Below, in pieces: positions 31,630 to 60,232 of a DNA stretch of 64,000 bases. The first letter of the stretch is position 1. Each line of letters starts with the position of its first letter. The notes under the pieces were generated by a model that saw nothing but the letters and a program-made list of their open reading frames with translations, was not told the origin of the DNA and did no database searches. The stretch spans positions 26,853 to 90,852 of the IMG/VR virus record IMGVR_UViG_3300030430_005214. The stretch is one strand, 5' to 3'. The stretch comes from a virus. A program made the translations under genes and the position numbers.

Positions 31630-32469
31630 TTATTCTTCGCTAATTGCGCGACCTTTAAGTTGTTCCCAATCTCGTTCGGGTCTAACCTCTAAATTTTTAC
31701 CCCAAGTAGATTTTAATACCATCGGGTTTACATCAACTTTTTCAGCAAAGCTGATTAGAGCGTTAACATCTTTTGGAAAACAAGAACCTCCAAAGCCGAA
31801 CTTACCGTCTGGACCTGGGGAGCTAAAATGAGTTCTCCCTATTCTTTGATCGTAAAGACCATACTCTACTACTTTATCATAATCTACGTTAATTTTTTCA
31901 CATATTTGTCTAATTTCATTAGAAAAACTAACTTTTGTGGCCAAAAAGCAGTTAGTAAAATACTTTACCATTTCTGCAGTGTTTGAACCAGTCTTTATAA
32001 TAGATGCTGATGGATAGCATTTTCTATAGAGATTTTTCACTTTTGTTGTTCCTGGTCTTGGGCCTCCGATGATAACTCTATTTTGATTTTTAAAATCATC
32101 AATAAAGTTTGCCTCCGTTAGAAACTCAGGGTTAAAAATAACTTGTAAGTTTTGGCACTCCTTGTTAAATTTTTCTGTTGTTCCGGGTAAAACGGTTGAC
32201 TTTATAACAGCAATATTGTTATTGTTAAAAGAATTTAATTTATAGATTGTGTTTGAAACTATTGATAAATCACATTCTCCATTTTTTCTCATCGGTGTTG
32301 GCAAACAAACAAATATTATTTCTGCTTTTTCGCTTAATTCTTCTAAAGAGTTGCAAGTTGATTGTTTAAATTTATCATAAGTTTCAATATTAACAAAATT
32401 TTTAAAGCCTTCTCGTATCGCCGTGCCGACAAAACCTTGTCCGATTACCCCAATAGTATTATTGTCCAC
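31630..32469 (-). CDS. compact nucleotide-sugar 6-dehydrogenase (UDP-glucose/UDP-GlcNAc dehydrogenase-like, 279 aa)
   Basis: Rossmann start IGVIGQGFVGTA near residues 6-17, then CLPTPM (family motif) and the catalytic-Cys loop GFGGSCFPKD. These identify the UDP-sugar dehydrogenase family, which oxidises C6 of UDP-glucose or UDP-GlcNAc with two NAD+. Length 279 is far below the usual 390-450; the whole C-terminal UDP-binding domain is missing and the protein ends in RDWEQLKGRAISEE. Start is GTG at 32469 with GAGGAG upstream. In the island it could feed the diamino-sugar route. Activity with a missing domain is uncertain. Confidence 0.75.
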   Translation of the reverse strand: MDNNTIGVIGQGFVGTAIREGFKNFVNIETYDKFKQSTCNSLEELSEKAEIIFVCLPTPMRKNGECDLSIVSNTIYKLNSFNNNNIAVIKSTVLPGTTEKFNKECQNLQVIFNPEFLTEANFIDDFKNQNRVIIGGPRPGTTKVKNLYRKCYPSASIIKTGSNTAEMVKYFTNCFLATKVSFSNEIRQICEKINVDYDKVVEYGLYDQRIGRTHFSSPGPDGKFGFGGSCFPKDVNALISFAEKVDVNPMVLKSTWGKNLEVRPERDWEQLKGRAISEE

Positions 32470-33323: not shown

Positions 33324-34127
33324 TTATTTCCTCTCTCTAATACTTTTTGCTACTTGTTCTGAAATTGGACAATCTCCAGTAATGCCAAGTTTTTTATATA
33401 TCGGCTGGTCGTATACAACTCTTGGATAGTGTCCTTTTTCGGGTCCTCTTAATCCTAACTCTGCTTTTACACCAGTCATATGTAATTTCATTTGTTCTAG
33501 AGCCATCAAGCACAAGGGCTCTGCTAGTCTAAAATTAAAGCCTATATATTCGTGATTATATTTTCCTACTTGACCTTGATCGCATATAGATCTAATTTTC
33601 TTATGATCAAGTTTCGATCCTTTTGGGATGCATATCATTCCACCTTCAAACGTAGATATGTTTTTGGTTTTGTAAAAAGAAAACGTTCCACAATCAGCCA
33701 GCATTCCTGCAAATTTACCACAATGACATTCGGCACCAAAAGCTTGAGCCGTATCTTCAATAACAACAAGGTCATGTTTTTTTGCGATCTCGTTTATTTT
33801 CTCCATTTCACACACCCTACCGTATAGGTGAACTGGTATGATTGCTTTTGTTTTGGGAGTTATTGCAGCCTCTATTTTTTTAGGATCTAACAAATATGTG
33901 TTTGGGTCTATATCGACGAATACTGGTTTTGCACCAGCAATTAATATTGCATTACTAGTGGCTATAAAAGTAAAAGGAGTTGTGATTACTTCATCTCCTG
34001 GTTGTAAATCTAGTGACCACAAAGGAGCGATTAGGGCTGCTGTGCCATTATTGACAGCTATACAATCTTCTAGATCAAATCTCTCTTTTACATATTCTTC
34101 AAATATATTTCTAATAACTACCGGCAT
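33324..34127 (-). CDS. compact DegT/DnrJ/StrS-family PLP aminotransferase (267 aa)
   Basis: Family motifs: AVNNGTAALIAP near residues 24-35, GDEVITTPFTFIATSNAI, DLVVIEDTAQAFGAEC and the PLP-lysine loop FSFYKTKNISTFEGGMI. Such enzymes aminate keto-sugars on nucleotide carriers (WbpE, GnnB types) using Glu. It is about 100 residues shorter than usual: the first 25 residues are missing, and after NFRLAEPLCLMALEQMK the usual 60-80 residues are skipped, running to an ending ISEQVAKSIRERK. The ATG is one base beyond the acetyltransferase stop. Either a compact active form or a decaying copy. Confidence 0.75.
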   Translation of the reverse strand: MPVVIRNIFEEYVKERFDLEDCIAVNNGTAALIAPLWSLDLQPGDEVITTPFTFIATSNAILIAGAKPVFVDIDPNTYLLDPKKIEAAITPKTKAIIPVHLYGRVCEMEKINEIAKKHDLVVIEDTAQAFGAECHCGKFAGMLADCGTFSFYKTKNISTFEGGMICIPKGSKLDHKKIRSICDQGQVGKYNHEYIGFNFRLAEPLCLMALEQMKLHMTGVKAELGLRGPEKGHYPRVVYDQPIYKKLGITGDCPISEQVAKSIRERK

Positions 34128-35551: not shown

Positions 35552-36384
35552 CAAACCTCATATTCATACTTTGAAAAAAAGTTAACCTTTTCTAAATATT
35601 TTTTATTTTTCCATTTTGTATGTCCTTTTGCAAACCATATTTTATTATTATCGCCAAATAAGGTATCACAATAGGGATTTAAATCTCTAGGAGTGTTTAT
35701 GGCAGTTTCCATTTTTATTTTTACGTTGTTTTCCATTTGATAATTAATTACAGATTTAACAAAATAGTTCATATCTGAAAATGTTTTGTTCATTGAGTCA
35801 GTGTTTTCTATTAATTTTATCCAACGATTGATAATATCAATACACACTTGATTCTTTCTCATTGCATGTGTTCCCAATAGAACAACTTTACCAGTTGTTG
35901 TTTTTAGTATATCATCAATACTGTTACCTTGTTCAACTAACATTTGTACATCGTTTATACCACAAACTTTTTTTGGCTCAAGTGAAAATATATTATTTTT
36001 AGAGCGTTCTAAAAAAACAAAATCATTATGATCTAAGTGTTCTTCAATGTAATTTAGATTATCGAACACAATGCCGTTGGCGCCAAAAGTACAAAGCTTT
36101 CCACTTTTACTATTTTTTAAAAGTTCAAGGAAAAGTCTTGGCCTATAGTTTCTGTAAAATTCTATTTTGTTATGAACATTGAAATTATTATTTTCTGAAC
36201 TAGTTCTGATAAAATTTATTTTTGTATCTTTAGAAAACTTATTTTTTACATTATAAAAGTCTTTATCAGTAAAGTCAAGTAAATTAAAGTGTATTAAGTT
36301 TTTATTCCCATGATATCTAATGCTTCTTATTAAAGCATTTGCAAATTTAAAATACTTTGGGTCGCACCAAGTTAAGATCTCCAT
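35551..36384 (-). CDS. putative glycosyltransferase-like protein lacking a clear DxD (277 aa)
   Basis: The start MEILTWCDPKYFKFANALI and the later block LFLELLKNSKSGKL resemble GT8-like GT-A proteins, but the expected DxD position reads FGANGIVFDN, so metal binding is doubtful. Length fits small GT-A enzymes. The correct start is ATG 36384, which shares its A with the Gfo/Idh stop (TAATG); a longer frame from 36429 is less likely. Function inferred from the island context only. Confidence 0.5.
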   Translation of the reverse strand: MEILTWCDPKYFKFANALIRSIRYHGNKNLIHFNLLDFTDKDFYNVKNKFSKDTKINFIRTSSENNNFNVHNKIEFYRNYRPRLFLELLKNSKSGKLCTFGANGIVFDNLNYIEEHLDHNDFVFLERSKNNIFSLEPKKVCGINDVQMLVEQGNSIDDILKTTTGKVVLLGTHAMRKNQVCIDIINRWIKLIENTDSMNKTFSDMNYFVKSVINYQMENNVKIKMETAINTPRDLNPYCDTLFGDNNKIWFAKGHTKWKNKKYLEKVNFFSKYEYEV

Positions 36385-37256
36385 TATGAAACCATCTCTA
36401 AGGCCGACAAAGCATGAACAATATGACATCCTGTTGGTTGTTCACCCCTCACAAACTTTACAAAACTATGCAATTCTTCATAAAGAGGTTCGCTTTTTTC
36501 TACAGGCACTGCTTCACATTCACCGGTGTATGAAATATATTGTATTTCTTGCTTAATATAATCTAGAAAATATTTACCTTCGTTACATATTAATTCAAGT
36601 GTTCTAATTTTTTCTGGTTCAACCCAAGAAGCTTCAGACAGCAGTATTGTATTTTGATCGTTTTTATATTTACAGATTAAAGTTGCGTAATCGGTTTTAT
36701 TATCATCTCTGGTTTTATTAGTGTATAAAGAGTGATCATCAAATTTAGAATCAATAAGATAATTAGCAACATCTGCATCGTGCACTAATAAATCTAAATT
36801 GACATAATCAGATGAGCGAGCAACAAAGTTCCCCAATCTTCTAGTTCTTATTAAATTAATACCGGTAATTTTTTTTTCGTCAATCATTGATTTTAATTTT
36901 TGTACAGCAGGATTAAATCTTTCAATGTGCCCAACAAATATATTTTTAGAGTATACCAGTAACTTTAGTGCTTTTATTCTATCATCGTCAATTGGCTTTT
37001 CTATAAAAAGTTTTAAATTTTTATTAATTTTTAACAATTCTAAAGATATATCAACGTGTTTGTCACTTGGTGCACAAATCAATACCGCATCTAATTCGTT
37101 TATTTGATCCAAAAAAAGTTCTTTATCATTATATTTTTCTATATTGGGATCATACAGTGCAGACAACTTAAAATCTTTTAGTTCGCTTTCTAGCTTTTTG
37201 CAAATCCTTAAATGATTTCTGCCCATATTTCCAATGCCACATATACCAAATTTCAT
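36384..37256 (-). CDS. Gfo/Idh/MocA-family nucleotide-sugar dehydrogenase, WbpB/GnnA-like (290 aa)
   Basis: N-terminal GICGIGNMGRNHL (NAD-binding GxGxxG), the EKP loop in LFIEKPIDDD near residue 89, GHIERFNPAVQKL and LLVHDADVANYL are family marks. GHIERFNPA is characteristic of the UDP-GlcNAc 3-dehydrogenases (GnnA, WbpB group) that make a 3-keto sugar for a DegT aminotransferase. An aminotransferase and a WbpD-like acetyltransferase lie 2 to 3 kb away, so a diamino-sugar route is likely. The C-terminus (ALSALEMVS) is slightly short for the family. Confidence 0.8.
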   Translation of the reverse strand: MKFGICGIGNMGRNHLRICKKLESELKDFKLSALYDPNIEKYNDKELFLDQINELDAVLICAPSDKHVDISLELLKINKNLKLFIEKPIDDDRIKALKLLVYSKNIFVGHIERFNPAVQKLKSMIDEKKITGINLIRTRRLGNFVARSSDYVNLDLLVHDADVANYLIDSKFDDHSLYTNKTRDDNKTDYATLICKYKNDQNTILLSEASWVEPEKIRTLELICNEGKYFLDYIKQEIQYISYTGECEAVPVEKSEPLYEELHSFVKFVRGEQPTGCHIVHALSALEMVS

Positions 37257-38118: not shown

Positions 38119-38820
38119 TTACAGTTTCTCGTTTTCTAAATATCTTGACAGTTCACTTTTCTCAGATAGGTTTACAAAATTTATATCATTATAGTCACCA
38201 AATTCTTTTATAAATTTAGCAGTTTTAAAAGTTGTGTGTCGGTCTTTAGGATTCCTTTCGTCTGGTTTGCAAGTTTTTATTAGTTGAGGTATATTGTACT
38301 TTTCATACTCCGAGTTGTTTGTCCAAAAATATTCAGATGAATATAAGTCAACACCGCAAAAATAAATTTTTTCATAATCCATCTTACTCATGATATCTAA
38401 AATTACTGTAATACTAGCCATGCAACTAACTTGAACATGATTATCATCTGGAAAATAGCGACCATCATTAGAGCGATACTTTTTTTTGTAACTAAAAATA
38501 TTTTCAAACCAATCTTCTTTTACCATATCAAAAAGATATGGTCTGGTTTTATCTAAAATCCAATTAACTTCTCTATAGTCATCTTTTTTAAGTTCTATCA
38601 TTTGCTTTGCGAAAGGACCATTACGATGCATCTTCACCTCTAAATGATAAAAATCTGGAACTATATCATGTATAAACCAATTATTTGACGTCCATATATC
38701 CATCTGTTTTATTTTTTGCCAGTCATTATCCTTCAAATCTAATATTGATGGCCCAGAGCCTAAAAATATAGCATTTTTGCTTTTCTTTTTTGCAATTATT
38801 TCTTTAACATCTTTAACCAT
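38119..38820 (-). CDS. GxGPS-motif protein, possible DUF115/GT42-like sugar-transferase relative (233 aa)
   Basis: The N-terminal AIFLGSGPSILDL (near residues 17-29) and WTSNNWFIHDIVPDFY resemble the nucleotide-binding start shared by GT42 sialyltransferase-like and DUF115 proteins; a later YEKIYFCGVDLYSSEYFW fits the same fold. No membrane segment. The ATG at 38820 overlaps the HAD gene end by 8 bases; an in-frame TTG at 38832 is not preferred. With CMP-sugar synthetases nearby, a transferase using a CMP-sugar is plausible but unproven. Confidence 0.5.
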   Translation of the reverse strand: MVKDVKEIIAKKKSKNAIFLGSGPSILDLKDNDWQKIKQMDIWTSNNWFIHDIVPDFYHLEVKMHRNGPFAKQMIELKKDDYREVNWILDKTRPYLFDMVKEDWFENIFSYKKKYRSNDGRYFPDDNHVQVSCMASITVILDIMSKMDYEKIYFCGVDLYSSEYFWTNNSEYEKYNIPQLIKTCKPDERNPKDRHTTFKTAKFIKEFGDYNDINFVNLSEKSELSRYLENEKL

Positions 38821-39121
38821 TTTGTTTCTCAAAAAATAAATCAGAATTTATTGCTTTATCACAGATAAAGTAATCATAATGTGGCTTACCCACCCTAAGA
38901 TCATGATACTTAGCTCCCCAGCTGTCGAGTTGTTGTTTGGTAAATTCTAGCCAGTTAATCCCGGTCACTGCTCCTCTCGCGGTCCAGTAAATTATTGTAT
39001 TTCCGTTATCATACAATGCGTTAACCGTGTTAATATTTTCTTTAATAGGTTGAGCTTTGCTATACATCCCATCAGTGTTATTGCAAATCGTTCCATCAAT
39101 ATCAACATAATATATTTTCAT
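38813..39121 (-). CDS. small HAD-superfamily phosphatase (102 aa)
   Basis: Motif I is YYVDIDGTIC (residues 4-13, nucleophile D7), motif II YWTARG, and a late Lys/Asp pair in KPHYDYFICDKAIN. The 102-residue size is smaller than KdsC (about 170-188) but the core is complete. Placed next to a KdsA-type synthase (ATGA overlap), it is the natural candidate for removing the phosphate from the octulosonate-8-phosphate. Capsule-linked HAD enzymes of the same size exist. Confidence 0.75.
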   Translation of the reverse strand: MKIYYVDIDGTICNNTDGMYSKAQPIKENINTVNALYDNGNTIIYWTARGAVTGINWLEFTKQQLDSWGAKYHDLRVGKPHYDYFICDKAINSDLFFEKQNG

Positions 39122-39909
39122 TCTTGAAATCCTTTTATAGAATTTTCAACCTTATCATAAACATTTAATACTGTCTCTAGTCTATTAAGAGGTACTTGGC
39201 AATCAGCATCTGATACAGCTTCCTTTGGTCTAGGGTGTGTTTCCATAAAGACGCCATCGTAATTAAGTATACTTGAAGCAACAACAAATCTTTCAGCCAG
39301 AACAGGATCACCTTGATAAACGTGAACTTTTCTGCTTCTTTGGGTAGAGTGTGTGCAGTCAAGAATAAATTTATCAAAATGCCTTTTGATCTCATCAACA
39401 ATAGTAAAGTCAACTATCATTTTGTCGTAACCAAAATTACTGCCGCGTTCGCACAGCCATGCTTCACAGTCTGGACTTGTATGTTTAATCTTATCAAGAG
39501 ATTTTATAATGTTATCTGGACCCAACCATTGGCCCTTTTTAACATTAATTTTTTTAAAATGTCTAGCACATTCAACAATTAAATCTGTTTGTCTGCATAG
39601 AAAAGCTGGGATTTGTATACAATCTATATACTCAGCCAATTTTTCTACTTGATTTGTTTCGTGTACATCAGTGAGTAATTTTATATCCGGATATTTTTCT
39701 TTAACAGCTTTAAAAGCCTCTATTCCTTCATCCATCCCTGGGCCGCGGCCGCCATAAAGAGAAGTTCTATTTGCCTTATCATAAGATGCTTTGTAGTACC
39801 ACTCATAATTGGTTTGACTCATATGTTTATATATTTCATCGGCAGTGTCAAGATAAAAATCAACACTTTCCATGGAACAAGGCCCAACAATCCAAACTTT
39901 ACTCATCAT
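39118..39909 (-). CDS. kdsA: KdsA-type 3-deoxy-octulosonate 8-phosphate synthase (263 aa)
   Basis: Clear KdsA family: VGPCSMES near the start, the signature YKASYDKANRTSLYGGRGPG, LLTDVHE, IQIPAFLCRQTDL, NVKKGQWL and CERGSNFGYDKMIVDFT. KdsA condenses phosphoenolpyruvate with arabinose-5-phosphate to give Kdo-8-phosphate. Length 263 is near normal (275-284). The exact aldose substrate cannot be proved from sequence. It sits between the HAD phosphatase and a NeuA-type cytidylyltransferase, which is the order of a CMP-ulosonate pathway. Confidence 0.9.
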   Translation of the reverse strand: MMSKVWIVGPCSMESVDFYLDTADEIYKHMSQTNYEWYYKASYDKANRTSLYGGRGPGMDEGIEAFKAVKEKYPDIKLLTDVHETNQVEKLAEYIDCIQIPAFLCRQTDLIVECARHFKKINVKKGQWLGPDNIIKSLDKIKHTSPDCEAWLCERGSNFGYDKMIVDFTIVDEIKRHFDKFILDCTHSTQRSRKVHVYQGDPVLAERFVVASSILNYDGVFMETHPRPKEAVSDADCQVPLNRLETVLNVYDKVENSIKGFQE

Positions 39910-40561
39910 TTACCCCATTTGATTTCATCAATGCCTCGATAACCATTAATTCCTCTTTTGTATCGACCTGAAAGCTTCGCGAGAATGGAATTTCTATAAC
40001 TCCAATATTGCCGCCATACCTCATTCCGGTTTTTAAAAGATTTCTTTTTGTTGTTATATAAAAGGCACCGTTTTCTATGTATTTTGGCTCAATAGTTTGC
40101 CGTCTTGGTCTGTATCTAATATTCCAGTCGATGGGTTTTACATCTAAACTCCATCGCGGCACCCAGTGCTCTTTAGTTACAGTGAAAACAGAATCATAAT
40201 AACCAGTTTGCATTAATGCAATTCCTTTATTTATATCATCTTTGCTCACCATTGGTGAAGTTGTTTGAATATACACCAGCATGTCAAAATCAACATTCTC
40301 AGCAAAGTGGACTAAGGTGTCTTCACATTTTGCAGTATCCGTTGCCAATTCCACTGGGCGTCTTATTACACTGGCGCCGCACTGTTCAGCAACAGCTTTT
40401 ATCTCATCATCTTCTGTGCTAACCCAAGTTTCATCAACTTTGGACCTTAAAGATGCATCGACAACATAAGATATCAACGGCTTGCCACAAAGAGGTGCAA
40501 TATTTTTTCTTGGAATGCCTTTACTTCCACCTCTAGCGAGAGTTAAAGAAACTATTTTCAT
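39899..40561 (-). CDS. CMP-sugar synthetase of NeuA (acylneuraminate cytidylyltransferase) type (220 aa)
   Basis: N-terminal LARGGSKGIPRKNI is the NeuA-type signature rather than the KdsB one (IPARYxSxRLPGK). Later VSTEDDEI, YIQTTSPM, YIENGAFYI and FQVDTKEEL fit the family. It transfers CMP from CTP to the anomeric carbon of a 2-keto-3-deoxy acid. Its partner here is a KdsA-type synthase, not a NeuB type, which makes the product ambiguous: Kdo, an 8-carbon relative, or another ulosonate. ATG 40561 overlaps the upstream stop as ATGA, with GGAG upstream. Confidence 0.85.
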   Translation of the reverse strand: MKIVSLTLARGGSKGIPRKNIAPLCGKPLISYVVDASLRSKVDETWVSTEDDEIKAVAEQCGASVIRRPVELATDTAKCEDTLVHFAENVDFDMLVYIQTTSPMVSKDDINKGIALMQTGYYDSVFTVTKEHWVPRWSLDVKPIDWNIRYRPRRQTIEPKYIENGAFYITTKRNLLKTGMRYGGNIGVIEIPFSRSFQVDTKEELMVIEALMKSNGVNDE

Positions 40562-41259
40562 TTGTTCTCCTCAAGTATCTTATTGTTTATTTTAACATTT
40601 TTTAAGCCAGGATTAAAACTAGAATATGTATAAAAAGTAAATAAAGTATCAGGAAATTTTTCTAATAAATTTGCTAAAAAGTTCTTCATACGAGGAGCTT
40701 TATCAATCCCTGATTTCTTTGGCGCCTCTTTGGTTTTTGTACTAGAACAAACCGTCAAATACTCTGCCTCATAAAAATCTAATCCAACCACAGTTATATC
40801 GGTATAACCCAACACGGCAGCTGCATAGGATGTCGTTAAGACCCCCATTGTAGGGAATCCAGGTAGTCTTAATTCAGTAGGCTTTCTTGGTTCTGAATAT
40901 TTTAATATACTGTCGTCTAAGTATTTACTCTTAACGTTCATATTATCAAGCATTAATTTCAATCTAGATGGAGTTCGATACGGTGGCTCACCGCTATATT
41001 CTTTTTTTAGAACATTTAGCGTAACTGATTTAACATTAAAATAATCATACATTTGTTTTGTCAGTAATGCAAAATTTTCCCTACAGATAAAGTGCTCAAT
41101 ATTTTTTTGTTTCGCTAAGAAATCTTTAACATAACTATGTAATACTTCTCTTTTAAAATCATTAACGATAATACACGTATCATATTCTTCATTATTTAAA
41201 AGTTTAATATTTTCTAATGATTTGCCGCGACATAAAATTATAAGTTTTTTATTCTTCAA
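40558..41259 (-). CDS. GT42-like / Rossmann-type protein with CRGKSL motif (233 aa)
   Basis: Starts LIILCRGKSLENIKLL and has a CIIVNDFKREV block, then TTSYAAAVLGYTDITVVGLDF, a layout like the CMP-binding start of GT42 sialyltransferase-like proteins and like the gene at 38119. No second conserved motif can be confirmed. The start is TTG at 41259, with AAAGG about 6 bases upstream and no nearby ATG. It could transfer the CMP-activated sugar made by the neighbouring genes (inference). Confidence 0.45.
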   Translation of the reverse strand: MKNKKLIILCRGKSLENIKLLNNEEYDTCIIVNDFKREVLHSYVKDFLAKQKNIEHFICRENFALLTKQMYDYFNVKSVTLNVLKKEYSGEPPYRTPSRLKLMLDNMNVKSKYLDDSILKYSEPRKPTELRLPGFPTMGVLTTSYAAAVLGYTDITVVGLDFYEAEYLTVCSSTKTKEAPKKSGIDKAPRMKNFLANLLEKFPDTLFTFYTYSSFNPGLKNVKINNKILEENK

Positions 41260-41260
41260 T

Positions 41261-41848
41261 TTATACCTTTCTTAATGAACTATCTGCCATTCGTTTTTTT
41301 TCTTCTGTAATAGACGGACAATGACTACCCACCATGTGTATCAAATCATAAAGCAGCATCATACACATTACCTCAACCGTGTGGAAATATTCACAACCAA
41401 AGCTTAGTTCATCTACTCCATCTCCCAAAACCTGTGAGTTTTGACCAGATAATAAAAACGTTTCAATGTTTTGCTCTTTGGCCCAATGTAGTGCCTTAAT
41501 AACATTTGATGAATTACCAGAGCAAGAAAGCCCAATAACTAAACACTCATCTGGATTTTCTATACTAGCATTTGATGTTGTCTCTAACCATCTTACAAAC
41601 ATATTTTTAAATCCATGATCATTGGCGTTTGATGTTATAAACCCGACACTTTCAAACGAGTAAACAACCTTGTCATGAACTAATCTTGTTAGATCTGTTG
41701 CCATATGGTTTGCCACAAAGTGCAAACCACCATTGCCTATTAGAAAAATCTTTTTTGATTTTTTTAACTTATTAACCAGCTTTGTGTATTCTTTTGTTGC
41801 AGTGACGTCACTACATTTTTTTTCTATATTTTCAAAATTAATATTCAT
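41261..41848 (-). CDS. SIS-domain sugar isomerase, GmhA-like (195 aa)
   Basis: SIS-domain motifs: IFLIGNGGLHFVANHMA, ITSNANDHGFKNMF (compare GmhA ...NDYGFEEVF) and LVIGLSCSGNSSNVIKALHWA, ending in a His-rich region TVEVMCMMLLYDLIHMV. GmhA converts sedoheptulose-7-phosphate to a heptose-7-phosphate. The gene lacks the CBS domains of KdsD, so it is better read as GmhA-like. It lies between the CMP-sugar genes and a sugar-phosphate cyclase; sedoheptulose-7-phosphate would also be the substrate of EEVS-type cyclases. Confidence 0.75.
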   Translation of the reverse strand: MNINFENIEKKCSDVTATKEYTKLVNKLKKSKKIFLIGNGGLHFVANHMATDLTRLVHDKVVYSFESVGFITSNANDHGFKNMFVRWLETTSNASIENPDECLVIGLSCSGNSSNVIKALHWAKEQNIETFLLSGQNSQVLGDGVDELSFGCEYFHTVEVMCMMLLYDLIHMVGSHCPSITEEKKRMADSSLRKV

Positions 41849-41861
41849 TTTTTAATCCTCT

Positions 41862-42929
41862 TTATTTTTTAGAATTAATATATTCAATAATGTTGTTTTT
41901 GTATCTTTCATTTAAAACAATTTGTTTTTTAAACATCTCTCCAAACCCTTTAGTTAGAATTATAGATATATTTCCATCAATATTTTTTTTATCTTTCTTT
42001 AAAGACTCCCAATATAAGTCTATGGAAATATCTTTTATGTCTTTAACATGATATTTAGAATTTTTTTCAACTAAAAGATCCATTTTATCATAATCTTTTT
42101 GTGACAAATATCCTTCTCTTAATGATATGAAATTAGATATTCCAATTCCAAAGGTTACTGCGGCTCCATGAGGTATCGCATAATCTGTGGCAGATTCTAA
42201 AGCGTGTCCAAAGGTATGCCCATAGTTTAAAATGTTTCTATAATTTCTATCATACTCATCTACTTCTATGATATCTTTTTTAATCTGCAAGCTATCATAA
42301 ATCAATTGTTTTAGTTCTTCTTTTCTCTCTAAAGACACATCATAAAAATCAAACAACTTTTGATACTTCTTTTCAGGATTTAAAAAATGAACTTTTATTA
42401 TTTCACCAATTCCTGATATGATATCACTTTGTAAAAGCGTCTCTAGAAAGTCTGTATTGACCACTATTTTTTCAGGTGGATAAAAGGTTCCAACTTGATT
42501 TTTATATTTCTCAATATTAATGGAGCTTTTGCTTCCAATACAACTATCGCATTGTGCTAAGAGTGTTGTTGGATAAAATTCCCATGGGACGCCTCTGAAT
42601 AATATAGAGGCCACAAAGCATGTAACATCTTGAGTTATTCCACCACCTATCGCCACGAGCTTATGATTCTTTTTAAAGCCAGAACTTAACAGATGTTTTA
42701 TAATCTCTTGACTTTGATTGATTGTTTTATTTGTTTCTATGGCCTCTAGTAAATATACACTTTGTCCCTTTAGAGCCTCAAATTTATTTTTATACAACTC
42801 ATGAACTTTTTTATCTACAATAAAAAAACATTTTGTGTTTTTAACGCTTTCTTCAAGATGTTTATTTACATTATTTGAAAATACGACTTCATAATCTTTA
42901 ATCAAAGATTGTACTTTAAAATTCTTCAT
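41862..42929 (-). CDS. sugar-phosphate cyclase of the 3-dehydroquinate synthase superfamily (355 aa)
   Basis: Motifs: AIGGGITQDVTCFVAS near residues 92-107, FYPTTLLAQCDSCIGSK, YKNQVGTFYPP, IGEIIKVHF and NYGHTFGHALE followed by PHGAAVTFG. The E, H and H of GEIIK, GHTFGH and PHG are the likely metal ligands. AroB enzymes usually have GGK and HGEAV where this has GSK and HGAAV, so it may be a sugar-phosphate cyclase (2-epi-5-epi-valiolone or deoxy-scyllo-inosose type) rather than a shikimate enzyme. It overlaps the DegT aminotransferase by 14 bases, the pairing seen in aminocyclitol and amino-ulosonate pathways. Confidence 0.8.
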   Translation of the reverse strand: MKNFKVQSLIKDYEVVFSNNVNKHLEESVKNTKCFFIVDKKVHELYKNKFEALKGQSVYLLEAIETNKTINQSQEIIKHLLSSGFKKNHKLVAIGGGITQDVTCFVASILFRGVPWEFYPTTLLAQCDSCIGSKSSINIEKYKNQVGTFYPPEKIVVNTDFLETLLQSDIISGIGEIIKVHFLNPEKKYQKLFDFYDVSLERKEELKQLIYDSLQIKKDIIEVDEYDRNYRNILNYGHTFGHALESATDYAIPHGAAVTFGIGISNFISLREGYLSQKDYDKMDLLVEKNSKYHVKDIKDISIDLYWESLKKDKKNIDGNISIILTKGFGEMFKKQIVLNERYKNNIIEYINSKK

Positions 42930-44055
42930 TTACCACCTCATTTATGCTTTCTATTATGTAAGATCTTTCTTCTAGTGATAAACCACAATACATTGGTAAG
43001 CATACATTTGTTTCCATTAAATGTCTAGCATTTTTATAATCTTGGTTGGTGATATTTTTTATTTTTTTATTTATTTTTTGTTCGTGACAAAGATATTCGT
43101 AAGTCGTCGGTGGTAAGTGTATATTATATTTTTGTTTTAGTAAATCAGTAAATTTTTGTTTTTTCTCTTTTGAGTCGGCAAAAATTATGTATTTGTAATA
43201 AGCGCTGGTAGTTCTATCTGGAATCATAAATTTAGAAAAGCCGTTATTTAACTCTATATTGTTGTCATAAAATTTAGCCAACTCTCTTCGTTCGTTAAAG
43301 ATATTTTTAGAATTTTTGCAGTGAAGAAGACCTAAGACTGCCGTAATCTCGGACATTTTATAGTTGTTACCTAGTTCAAAAACTTCAAAATTGTTGACAC
43401 TTCTGTCTAAACCAATAGCTCTTATTCTAAGCATTTTTTGTATTAAATCATCTTTATTAGATGTAATCATTCCACCTTCGCCGGTTGTTAAAACTTTAGA
43501 GTGGTGAAAAGAAAAAGCTCCATAGTGACCAATAGATCCCACACTTTTACCTTCATAGCTTGCGCCGTGTGCACATGCTGCGTCTTCAATTAAAAATATA
43601 TCTCTTTCATCGCAATAATCTTTTATTTTTTGGATTTCATTGCTCACTATTCCACCAACATGCACAATTATTATTGCTTTTGTATTATCCTTTATGGAAC
43701 TTTTAATAGTTTCTAGGCTTAAAGAAAATGTTTCTTTGGATATATCAGCGTATATAACTTCTGCACCAGCATTGTGCACTGACAGTGGTGTCGCAAAAAA
43801 AGTATACGTAGGCACGACAACTGAATGGCCACGGACATCAATAGCTTTTAGAATAATTTCCAGAGCAGTTGTACAACTATTAACAGCTATACTATTTTTT
43901 ACATTTATTATATCAGACCAAGTTGATTCAAAGTTTTTAACATATTCTCCACCATCTGTGAGGTATCCATTTTTTAACACTAATTCGATGTGCTTTTGCA
44001 CATATTCAATGTCTTCTTTAGAATATGGAAGATTATATTTTTTTATATTTAGCAT
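42916..44055 (-). CDS. DegT/DnrJ/StrS-family PLP aminotransferase (379 aa)
   Basis: Full-length DegT fold: AVNSCTTALEII, VVVPTYTFFATPLSVH, IFLIEDAACAHGASYEG, and the PLP-lysine loop GAFSFHHSKVLTTGEGGMI (Lys in HSK). StrS-type enzymes aminate keto-cyclitols and keto-sugars. Start chosen at ATG 44055 (MLNIKKYN), with GCGGAG about 5 bases upstream; the longer frame from 44088 lacks such a site. It is adjacent to the DHQ-synthase-like cyclase and to a second CMP-sugar synthetase. Unlike the aminotransferase at 33324, it is of normal length. Confidence 0.85.
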   Translation of the reverse strand: MLNIKKYNLPYSKEDIEYVQKHIELVLKNGYLTDGGEYVKNFESTWSDIINVKNSIAVNSCTTALEIILKAIDVRGHSVVVPTYTFFATPLSVHNAGAEVIYADISKETFSLSLETIKSSIKDNTKAIIIVHVGGIVSNEIQKIKDYCDERDIFLIEDAACAHGASYEGKSVGSIGHYGAFSFHHSKVLTTGEGGMITSNKDDLIQKMLRIRAIGLDRSVNNFEVFELGNNYKMSEITAVLGLLHCKNSKNIFNERRELAKFYDNNIELNNGFSKFMIPDRTTSAYYKYIIFADSKEKKQKFTDLLKQKYNIHLPPTTYEYLCHEQKINKKIKNITNQDYKNARHLMETNVCLPMYCGLSLEERSYIIESINEVVNEEF

Positions 44056-44698
44056 ATGTCTCCGCAAAAATGAAATCGAATTCTTCATCTATGTCAATAC
44101 ACTCGTGGCGCGAAACTATCATAGTAGTAAACCTATTAGTAACTCTTTTTTGCTCTTTTTCAAAAGCGGCTCTTCTAAAAACATAAAAACCACTTTCTCT
44201 CAAAATAGGCTTCATGTATTGTGTTCCAACTAGCTTCTCTATATCGTGATTAACCGGTTTGATTTGTTCTTTATTATCTGTATGCCAAAATCGATCATAC
44301 ACCTCGTACAACGGCACAACAGAATTTACATTGGAATTCTTTTGTAGAGTGGAGATTGCGTTGTCAATTGTCTCATGATGTAAAAAAGGTAAAGTAACAA
44401 AAACTTGACAAATTATATCTTCATTAATTTTTTGCAACTCAAAGTTTAACAAGTCGTTTCCAGAAACATCAGGGCCATTTAGGTACTTTGGTCTTTTTAT
44501 GGTTTCAAAATTGTTTTCAACCGCTATGTTTAATATCATGTCATCTGATGAATCAACATAAATCTTATCTACATTTTTACATTTTTTTACAGTTTTAAAA
44601 ATGTAATCATACAGGGGACGACCATTTAGTAATTTTGTATTTTTTCCTGGTAGTCTTTGATTATTTGTTTTTATTGGAATTACTATGCTTGTTTTCAT
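44033..44698 (-). CDS. second CMP-sugar synthetase (NeuA-like cytidylyltransferase) (221 aa)
   Basis: Starts TSIVIPIKTNNQRLPGKNTKLL, the nucleotide-binding loop of the acylneuraminate cytidylyltransferase family, with IYVDSSDDMI and VFVTLPFLHHETID downstream. The loop reads IPIKTNNQRLPGKN instead of IPARxGSKxIPxKN, a divergent form, and the expected conserved Arg is not at its usual place. It overlaps the next gene by 38 bases and the aminotransferase start by 23. With the NeuA-type enzyme at 39899, the island has two activating enzymes of one class. Confidence 0.7.
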   Translation of the reverse strand: MKTSIVIPIKTNNQRLPGKNTKLLNGRPLYDYIFKTVKKCKNVDKIYVDSSDDMILNIAVENNFETIKRPKYLNGPDVSGNDLLNFELQKINEDIICQVFVTLPFLHHETIDNAISTLQKNSNVNSVVPLYEVYDRFWHTDNKEQIKPVNHDIEKLVGTQYMKPILRESGFYVFRRAAFEKEQKRVTNRFTTMIVSRHECIDIDEEFDFIFAETYAKYKKI

Positions 44699-59211: not shown

Positions 59212-60210
59212 TTAGATCTCATGAGGGGACCGAGAAAAAACAACAGACCTAACAAAAGGTACATTGTCCAACTTTCGTTTAATATACTCTTCCATATGTT
59301 TAGCATCAATGAAACGTTTGAGAGTGCTGTTTTCATTAATAGCAAAGTGACCGACATTTTCTAGAACATCCATTTTATTAAAAACAATATGCGTTGCTCC
59401 ATTAATATTAATCGCTTTTTGCAAAAAGTTTAAATTCATCCAGTTAACTTGTCTTTTTCTTCCTGTGGTAGCACCATATTCTTGACCCTCTTCTTGTATT
59501 TTTGTAAATACATCACCTTGAGGTTGAAAGGCTTTAGATCCAACATAAGTCTCATAAGATTTAGCTACACCATAAATATTTCTTACAGTTTGTGGCGGAA
59601 CACCGTTCATTAGTGCCGCCGCAGAAATGCAATTGGATGATGTGACATAAGGATAAGAGCCCCAATCAATATCCAGTCCAAAGCCTTGAGCGCCCTCGAA
59701 AAGAATAATTGGATTACCGCATCTTTCATGTAGTTCTTCATAAAGGTCTATTAGATAAGGACGAAGCTCAGAAACATCTTCGGCTCTAACACCAGTTCTG
59801 GCAAACTTATCTCTATAAGCGGGACCGTTACCTCGTTTAGTCGTGCCTATTTTTGTTTCTCTTGCTTCTTCTTCAATGTGATTTTGCGTAATAATGTGAG
59901 CATTTTTAGCGATAAATACAAGACCATTTGCGTCAATACCGCCTTCTTTTAATTCTTCAATCTCTTTAAAAAATTGTTCCACGTTGACAACACACCCCGG
60001 ACCAATAATGGACCGAATGCCAAAAAATACACCGGCAGGTATGTGATGAGTAACAAATTTTTTCCCTCTATGAAAGATAGTGTGGCCGGCGTTACAACCG
60101 CCATTATATCTGATAACATGCGTATATTCTCCTGTTCTACAAAGGTGATGTGTAACTTTTCCTTTTCCACAGTCACCATACTGTAAATCTACAACAATAT
60201 CTGAAATCAT
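59212..60210 (-). CDS. purA: compact adenylosuccinate synthetase-like enzyme (332 aa)
   Basis: Motifs: GDCGKGK at residues 12-18 (P-loop; D13 kept, E14 replaced by Cys), GGCNAGHT (H43), KIGTTKRGNGPAYRDK, YPYVTSSN, GATTGRKRQVNW and FNKMDVLENVG. It makes adenylosuccinate from IMP, GTP and Asp. At 332 aa it is about 100 shorter than bacterial PurA but near archaeal PurA and phage PurZ. PurZ lacks the catalytic Asp, as I recall, so D13 argues for PurA. Start is ATG 60210 with GGAGGGG upstream; the longer frame begins with TTG. Confidence 0.8.
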   Translation of the reverse strand: MISDIVVDLQYGDCGKGKVTHHLCRTGEYTHVIRYNGGCNAGHTIFHRGKKFVTHHIPAGVFFGIRSIIGPGCVVNVEQFFKEIEELKEGGIDANGLVFIAKNAHIITQNHIEEEARETKIGTTKRGNGPAYRDKFARTGVRAEDVSELRPYLIDLYEELHERCGNPIILFEGAQGFGLDIDWGSYPYVTSSNCISAAALMNGVPPQTVRNIYGVAKSYETYVGSKAFQPQGDVFTKIQEEGQEYGATTGRKRQVNWMNLNFLQKAININGATHIVFNKMDVLENVGHFAINENSTLKRFIDAKHMEEYIKRKLDNVPFVRSVVFSRSPHEI

Positions 60211-60232
60211 AAACCCCTCCAAGTGAGGTTCT

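What the first reader, a model, noticed from the sequence alone, without database searches (positions are those of the whole stretch)
38813..44698. Phage island with a possible new CMP-activated amino-sugar or aminocyclitol route
Within 6 kb are a KdsA-type synthase, a small HAD phosphatase, two NeuA-like cytidylyltransferases, a GmhA-like isomerase, a dehydroquinate-synthase-like cyclase and a StrS-type aminotransferase. KdsA normally pairs with KdsB, not NeuA. The cyclase-plus-aminotransferase pair is typical of aminocyclitols; alternatively it parallels KdnB/KdnA, which make 8-amino-Kdo. The cyclase has GSK and HGAAV where AroB has GGK and HGEAV. The mixture does not match one known pathway (inference).
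Basis: partly seen in the sequence, partly recalled or inferred. Interest (0 to 1): 0.75.

Follow-up and report, generated by a model that had tools for sequence, protein, structure and literature searches.

The report
Phage cassette with orphan AroB-like cyclase
A marine-type phage carries two separable gene cassettes for activated surface sugars: one looks like a Kdo-type pathway, the other, built around an uncharacterised relative of dehydroquinate synthase, recurs in dozens of phages and bacteria and may make a CMP-activated amino-cyclitol not described so far.

Summary
The genes are there, but they are two cassettes, not one mixed route. Cassette 1 is NeuA2, DegT aminotransferase, cyclase, GmhA-like isomerase. 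Cassette 2 is GTa, NeuA1, KdsA, HAD. Five other phages keep cassette 1; only one of them also has cassette 2. The cyclase passes the cut-off of TIGR04425, an orphan 'AroB-related cyclizing phospholyase' family (438 vs 400 bits), and fails the AroB cut-off. The family is one clade (100/99) on the AroB side, far from EEVS/DDGS, and keeps the DHQS active-site residues that EEVS/DDGS lose. CTP transferases lie beside 35 of 44 cyclases of the window's class, 0 of 40 of a second (ThDP) class and 0 of 27 ordinary aroB genes. The cyclase-linked CTP transferase has lost the Arg that salt-bridges sialate; NeuA1 keeps it. In 8 of 18 cyclase-less phage loci a HAD gene stands in, mostly in the SDR-cyclase slot. 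Best reading: a CMP-activated aminocyclitol for surface glycan. The product is inferred, not shown.

The parts
44033..44698 (-). NeuA2: cytidylyltransferase of cassette 1, acceptor site altered (Phe/Thr where CMP-sialate synthetases have Gln104/Arg165)
   Evidence: PF02348 75 bits; residues; 49-54% to the same gene in five phages
42916..44055 (-). DegT/StrS-type aminotransferase of cassette 1 (start at 44055 preferred over 44088 from the sister genes)
   Evidence: PF01041 296 bits; PDB matches; 53-55% in five phages
41862..42929 (-). TIGR04425 AroB-related sugar phosphate cyclase
   Evidence: 438 bits vs cut-off 400; clade 100/99; active-site residues
41261..41848 (-). GmhA-like SIS-domain isomerase of cassette 1
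   Evidence: PF13580 27.3 bits, gmhA 65.9 vs 209; up to 69% to phage relatives, 54 viral loci
40558..41259 (-). GTa: putative CMP-sugar glycosyltransferase, no family hit
   Evidence: weak fold match to sialyltransferase CstII, E 3e-4, TM 0.32, model pLDDT 72; 53% in L156
39899..40561 (-). NeuA1: NeuA-type CMP synthetase of cassette 2, keeps Gln104 and Arg165
   Evidence: groups with PpNeuA and mouse NeuA
39118..39909 (-). KdsA: Kdo-8-phosphate synthase
   Evidence: 261 bits vs 242 NF003543; PDB KdsA
38813..39121 (-). small HAD phosphatase, candidate KdsC role
   Evidence: phrog_1238 2.7e-28, EcbF-BcbF 2.9e-6
38119..38832 (-). MptE/Maf-like protein, candidate CMP-sugar glycosyltransferase; not in the sister phages' loci
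   Evidence: PF01973 21.4 bits, below cut-off 34.6
36384..37256 (-). Gfo/Idh/MocA oxidoreductase near the cassettes; membership of cassette 1 uncertain
   Evidence: PF01408 42.9 bits; Gfo/Idh genes recur beside bacterial relatives

Best explanation
The island holds two independent CMP-sugar cassettes for surface-glycan remodelling. Cassette 2 (GTa, NeuA1, KdsA, HAD) makes Kdo-8-phosphate from PEP and host arabinose-5-phosphate, dephosphorylates it, couples it to CMP and transfers it (assigned by homology). Cassette 1 (NeuA2, aminotransferase, TIGR04425 cyclase, GmhA-like) is a separate route. The GmhA-like isomerase prepares a ketose phosphate; the cyclase does DHQS-type NAD-dependent oxidation, phosphate elimination and ring closure to a keto-cyclitol; the aminotransferase puts an amine on the ketone; the altered CTP transferase makes a CMP conjugate for a glycosyltransferase. 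Shown: gene families, cassette boundaries, recurrence, cyclase clade, kept and lost residues. Inferred: substrates, order of steps, product.
For: Cassette 1 in L143, L156, L161, L165, L177; cassette 2 beside it only in L156. TIGR04425 over cut-off, one clade 100/99. DHQS residues R112, K134, N144, E176, K217, R231, N235, H238, H242, H254, K315 kept, several lost in EEVS/DDGS. All 8 bacterial genomes searched hold a further, higher-scoring PF01761 gene. CTP transferase within 6 kb in 35 of 44 loci of this class, 0 of 40 ThDP-class loci, 0 of 27 aroB controls. NeuB in 1 of 31 and PF00793 in 2 of 31 cyclase phage records, none NeuB in this record, so the linked CTP transferase usually has no phage ulosonate supply. 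Gln104/Arg165 lost in cyclase-linked phage CTP transferases, kept in NeuA1; R165A is inactive (PMC2901514). HAD gene in 8 of 18 cyclase-less loci, 0 of 36 with cyclase (p 4e-5, 7e-4 after collapsing near-copies).
Against: No substrate or product is known for TIGR04425. Fourteen of 15 cyclase-less records have no TIGR04425 anywhere yet keep the GmhA-like gene and mostly NeuA and a class III aminotransferase, so the CMP product need not be a cyclitol; records may be fragments. The kept DHQS arginine R231 fits a carboxylated, DAHP-like substrate, while the CTP transferase's acceptor does not look like a ulosonate; I cannot reconcile these from sequence. PseF-like 9ftb also lacks Arg165, with Arg shifted by one, so the loss alone does not prove a non-ulosonate acceptor. 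Known activated cyclitols are GDP-linked (PMC9200736), not CMP-linked. The SDR beside nearly every other cyclase is missing from this record.
Confidence: 0.45

Rival explanations
1. Cassette 1 makes an ordinary (ring-oxygen) CMP-activated amino sugar; NeuA, the aminotransferase and the GmhA-like isomerase are the core and the cyclase (with SDR elsewhere) only supplies or alters a side precursor.
For: NeuA, class III aminotransferase and GmhA-like genes persist without the cyclase in several phages; a HAD gene stands in the SDR-cyclase slot in most HAD-bearing loci.
Against: All five phages with the window's DegT-type cassette keep the cyclase; the SDR-cyclase pair is near-universal in the bacterial clusters, though those loci were found by their cyclase.
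Confidence: 0.27
2. One joint pathway: KdsA product is further processed by the cyclase and aminotransferase, as in 8-amino-Kdo, and both CMP synthetases act on Kdo derivatives.
For: All genes sit in one tight run, and L156 keeps the same order.
Against: Cassette 1 exists without KdsA in four of five sister phages and PF00793 is in 2 of 31 cyclase records; not a KdnB-type Fe-ADH; NeuA2 lacks the ulosonate Arg; chemically Kdo8P lacks the DAHP-like beta-phosphate geometry (own reasoning).
Confidence: 0.1
3. The cyclase is an extra 3-dehydroquinate synthase that boosts the host shikimate pathway.
For: All DHQS active-site residues checked are kept; best fold matches are AroB.
Against: Below the aroB cut-off, separate clade, sugar-cassette neighbours in phages and bacteria, and carriers have another AroB-type gene.
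Confidence: 0.1

Closest known systems
NCBIfam TIGR04425, AroB-related putative sugar phosphate phospholyase (cyclizing)
   Same: The window cyclase is over the curated cut-off
   Different: A hypothetical equivalog with no function given; no paper in the library names it. The phage cassettes and the CTP-transferase link were not found in the papers searched.
3-dehydroquinate synthase (AroB)
   Same: Fold (TM 0.86-0.88) and all active-site residues checked
   Different: Cys130, residue other than Glu in HGxAV, His at 179 in many members (not the window), separate clade, sugar-cassette context
2-deoxystreptamine start: DOIS (BtrC), BtrS aminotransferase, BtrN radical SAM (roles recalled)
   Same: Cyclase next to a DegT aminotransferase; one sister phage, L161, adds a radical SAM/SPASM gene
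   Different: DOIS scores 99 bits against 161 for the best AroB; CTP transferase and GmhA-like isomerase added; radical SAM in that slot in only one of five sister loci
C7-cyclitol pathways (EEVS to GDP-valienol; acarbose, validamycin)
   Same: A carbocycle is activated as a nucleotide (PMC9200736)
   Different: EEVS fingerprint absent; activation there is to GDP from a 1-phosphate, not CMP
Kdo pathway (KdsA, KdsC, KdsB)
   Same: Cassette 2 has KdsA, a HAD protein and a CMP synthetase
   Different: The synthetase is NeuA-type, not KdsB; no KdsD in the cassette

Membership tests
TIGR04425 (cyclase) | score over curated cut-off of 400 bits | tested here: met
   438.3 bits, residues 6-352
3-dehydroquinate synthase AroB | aroB equivalog cut-off of 305 bits | tested here: not met
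   280.8 bits
3-dehydroquinate synthase AroB | metal and substrate residues of DHQS | tested here: met
   eleven positions conserved
3-dehydroquinate synthase AroB | DAHP to 3-dehydroquinate activity | not testable with these tools
   needs an enzyme assay
EEVS/DDGS (sedoheptulose-7-phosphate cyclases) | their residues at 217, 235, 242 and their clade | tested here: not met
2-deoxy-scyllo-inosose synthase | closest relationship to DOIS | tested here: inconclusive
   2d2x 99 bits vs AroB 161, TM 0.84; DOIS not placed in the tree
KdnB / iron-containing alcohol dehydrogenase | PF00465 gathering score of 31.3 | tested here: not met
   24.7 bits
KdsA | NF003543 cut-off and KdsA motifs | tested here: met
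   261 vs 242; below the stricter TIGR01362 (249 vs 314); alignment
KdsB | TIGR00466 cut-off of 155 bits | tested here: not met
   NeuA1 32.3 bits, NeuA2 not listed
CMP-ulosonate synthetase (NeuA1) | Gln104 and Arg165 of the acceptor site | tested here: met
CMP-ulosonate synthetase (NeuA2) | Gln104 and Arg165 of the acceptor site | tested here: not met
   Phe and Thr; K21, R71, D209, D211 kept
GmhA | gmhA equivalog cut-off of 209 bits | tested here: not met
   65.9 bits

The most novel reading that the evidence does not exclude
Phages and many bacteria share an undescribed route in which a TIGR04425 cyclase makes an aminocyclitol that a repurposed NeuA-type enzyme activates as a CMP conjugate and a sialyltransferase-like enzyme adds to surface glycan: a CMP-activated carbasugar, with a HAD-phosphatase variant of the cassette that makes the ring-oxygen counterpart.
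Probability: 0.3. Interest if true: 0.82.

Novelty: new variant of a known kind. Interest (0 to 1): 0.6.

Why it matters
TIGR04425 is an orphan branch of the sugar phosphate cyclases spread over many bacterial phyla and phages. The cassette gives it a defined partner set of four genes, a swap variant (HAD for SDR-cyclase) and a CTP transferase with a rebuilt acceptor site, so its substrate and product can be tested with a handful of proteins. If the product is a CMP-activated carbocycle, it would be a new kind of activated sugar and a new way for phages to alter the host surface.

Tried and rejected
A single-protein scan of viral contigs with the cyclase found nothing, because the peptides chosen were not conserved; a degenerate DNA pattern for QxDSxIGSKSSIN worked. 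A single-protein KdsA scan found nothing. No TIGR04425-like gene appeared in annotated phage records; those hits are under 34% identity, where named AroB. Randomised rows of the cyclase were written as possible search bait and dropped unused. One-pathway, KdnB-type, EEVS and plain-AroB readings were considered and lowered, for the reasons given. GSK as a diagnostic motif was rejected. A radical SAM gene as a general cassette part was rejected: it is in that slot in L161 only. Bradyrhizose was looked at as a possible product of the second cyclase class (PMC4743980) but its gene cluster is not listed there in enough detail to test. Literature searches on the family and on phage CMP cassettes gave nothing relevant.

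Full report
What is there. The eight genes from 44698 down to 38813 are read on the minus strand with overlaps or gaps between -23 and +13 nt, like one operon. Family assignments are firm for KdsA, both PF02348 cytidylyltransferases, the cyclase and the DegT aminotransferase; the GmhA-like and HAD proteins are looser. An eighth gene, 40558-41259, has no family hit; its AlphaFold model (pLDDT 72, two sequences) has sialyltransferase CstII as its best PDB match, E 3e-4 but TM 0.32, a weak hint of a CMP-sugar glycosyltransferase. The record is a 104 kb phage contig with portal, large terminase, primase, tail fibre and endolysin genes.

The cyclase. It scores 438 bits against TIGR04425 (cut-off 400) and 281 against aroB (cut-off 305). 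A scan of viral contigs with a family motif found 42 loci, all with a relative at 38-46% identity; a scan of bacterial genomes found about 50 more. In a careful tree the family is one clade (100/99) next to AroB and away from EEVS/DDGS (100/100). DOIS was not in the tree. The family keeps every DHQS active-site residue checked, including those replaced in EEVS/DDGS, but has Cys at 130, rarely Glu in HGxAV, and His instead of Lys at 179 in 21 of 38 viral and 11 of 49 bacterial members; the window has Lys. Fold matches are led by AroB. All eight bacterial genomes tested also hold a separate, higher-scoring cyclase-family gene, so this is not the housekeeping enzyme.

Two classes of neighbourhood. 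An SDR gene is beside nearly every cyclase. One class adds a GmhA-like isomerase, CTP transferase (NeuA or KdsB type), aminotransferase and, in bacteria, Gfo/Idh and 2-hydroxyacid dehydrogenases. The other adds a ThDP enzyme and an HpcH-like protein. CTP transferases lie within 6 kb in 35 of 44 loci of the first class, 0 of 40 of the second, and 0 of 27 ordinary aroB loci. The classes were defined without the CTP transferase. Loci are not independent, so the p-values are only a guide.

Reverse test. Starting from the GmhA-like protein, 54 viral loci were found; 36 have the cyclase and nearly all full-length ones have a NeuA. Five have the window's order NeuA2, DegT aminotransferase, cyclase, GmhA-like, without an SDR in the cassette (L143, L156, L161, L165, L177). 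Only L156 continues with GTa, NeuA1, KdsA, HAD as in the window (53-57% identity); in L143, L161 and L165 the GmhA-like gene is followed directly by a UDP-glucose-dehydrogenase-like gene. This separates the island into two cassettes.

Cyclase-less variants. In 8 of the 18 cyclase-less loci a HAD gene is present, in six of them exactly between NeuA and the class III aminotransferase where SDR-cyclase otherwise sits; no locus has both. Cyclase and phosphatase both remove a phosphate, which suggests (inference) that they are alternative exits from the same sugar phosphate. It also shows that NeuA, aminotransferase and GmhA-like genes can go without the cyclase, which is the main weakness of the cyclitol reading.

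The two CTP transferases differ. Against N. meningitidis CMP-Neu5Ac synthetase numbering, NeuA1 keeps Gln104 and Arg165 and groups with true NeuA. NeuA2 and all cyclase-linked phage enzymes have Phe or Leu and Thr or Ser there, with the CTP and metal residues kept. [quoted passage not shown] The PseF-like 9ftb has Arg one position earlier; NeuA2 has none at either place. NeuB is found in 1 of 31 and the KdsA family in 2 of 31 cyclase phage records, and NeuB not in this one.

Mechanism. Cassette 2 is best read as a Kdo-type route with a NeuA-type synthetase. Cassette 1 is best read as isomerase, cyclase, aminotransferase, CMP coupling. The kept DHQS arginine argues for a DAHP-like acid as cyclase substrate, the altered NeuA2 argues against a ulosonate acceptor; which of the two misleads is open. 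Nucleotide-activated cyclitols are known as GDP-valienol (PMC9200736); a CMP-cyclitol is not known to me.

Verdict. Observation confirmed; interpretation partly supported; a new variant built on a named but uncharacterised family.

Noticed in passing
59212-60222: PurZ-like adenylosuccinate synthetase (phrog_1211, E 2e-73): the phage may use 2-aminoadenine in its DNA.
   Followed up: no
L027, L078, L082, L086, L089 and others: Second cyclase class: HpcH-like protein, SDR, cyclase and a ThDP acetolactate-synthase-like enzyme, in bacteria often beside CDP-hexose genes; could make a branched or carbocyclic sugar. Also in about 16 viral contigs.
   Followed up: partly
L161:9169-9987: Radical SAM/SPASM gene between the cyclase and the GmhA-like gene.
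   Followed up: partly
41862-42929 against L156, L161: The window cyclase does not group with the cyclases of sister cassettes although the neighbouring genes are more alike (53-57% against 41-42%): possible gene replacement.
   Followed up: partly
L062: A contig binned as a thaumarchaeal genome has the phage cassette almost identical to phage L021; probably a viral contig in the bin.
   Followed up: no
33324-34127 and 31630-32469: A short DegT aminotransferase (267 aa) and a UDP-sugar dehydrogenase matching only part of its N-terminal domain; both look truncated.
   Followed up: no
L060, L056, L050, L063: Bacterial clusters of the window's class often hold TIGR04326 surface carbohydrate genes and KdsB-like transferases, so the cassette may mirror a host surface-glycan pathway.
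   Followed up: partly
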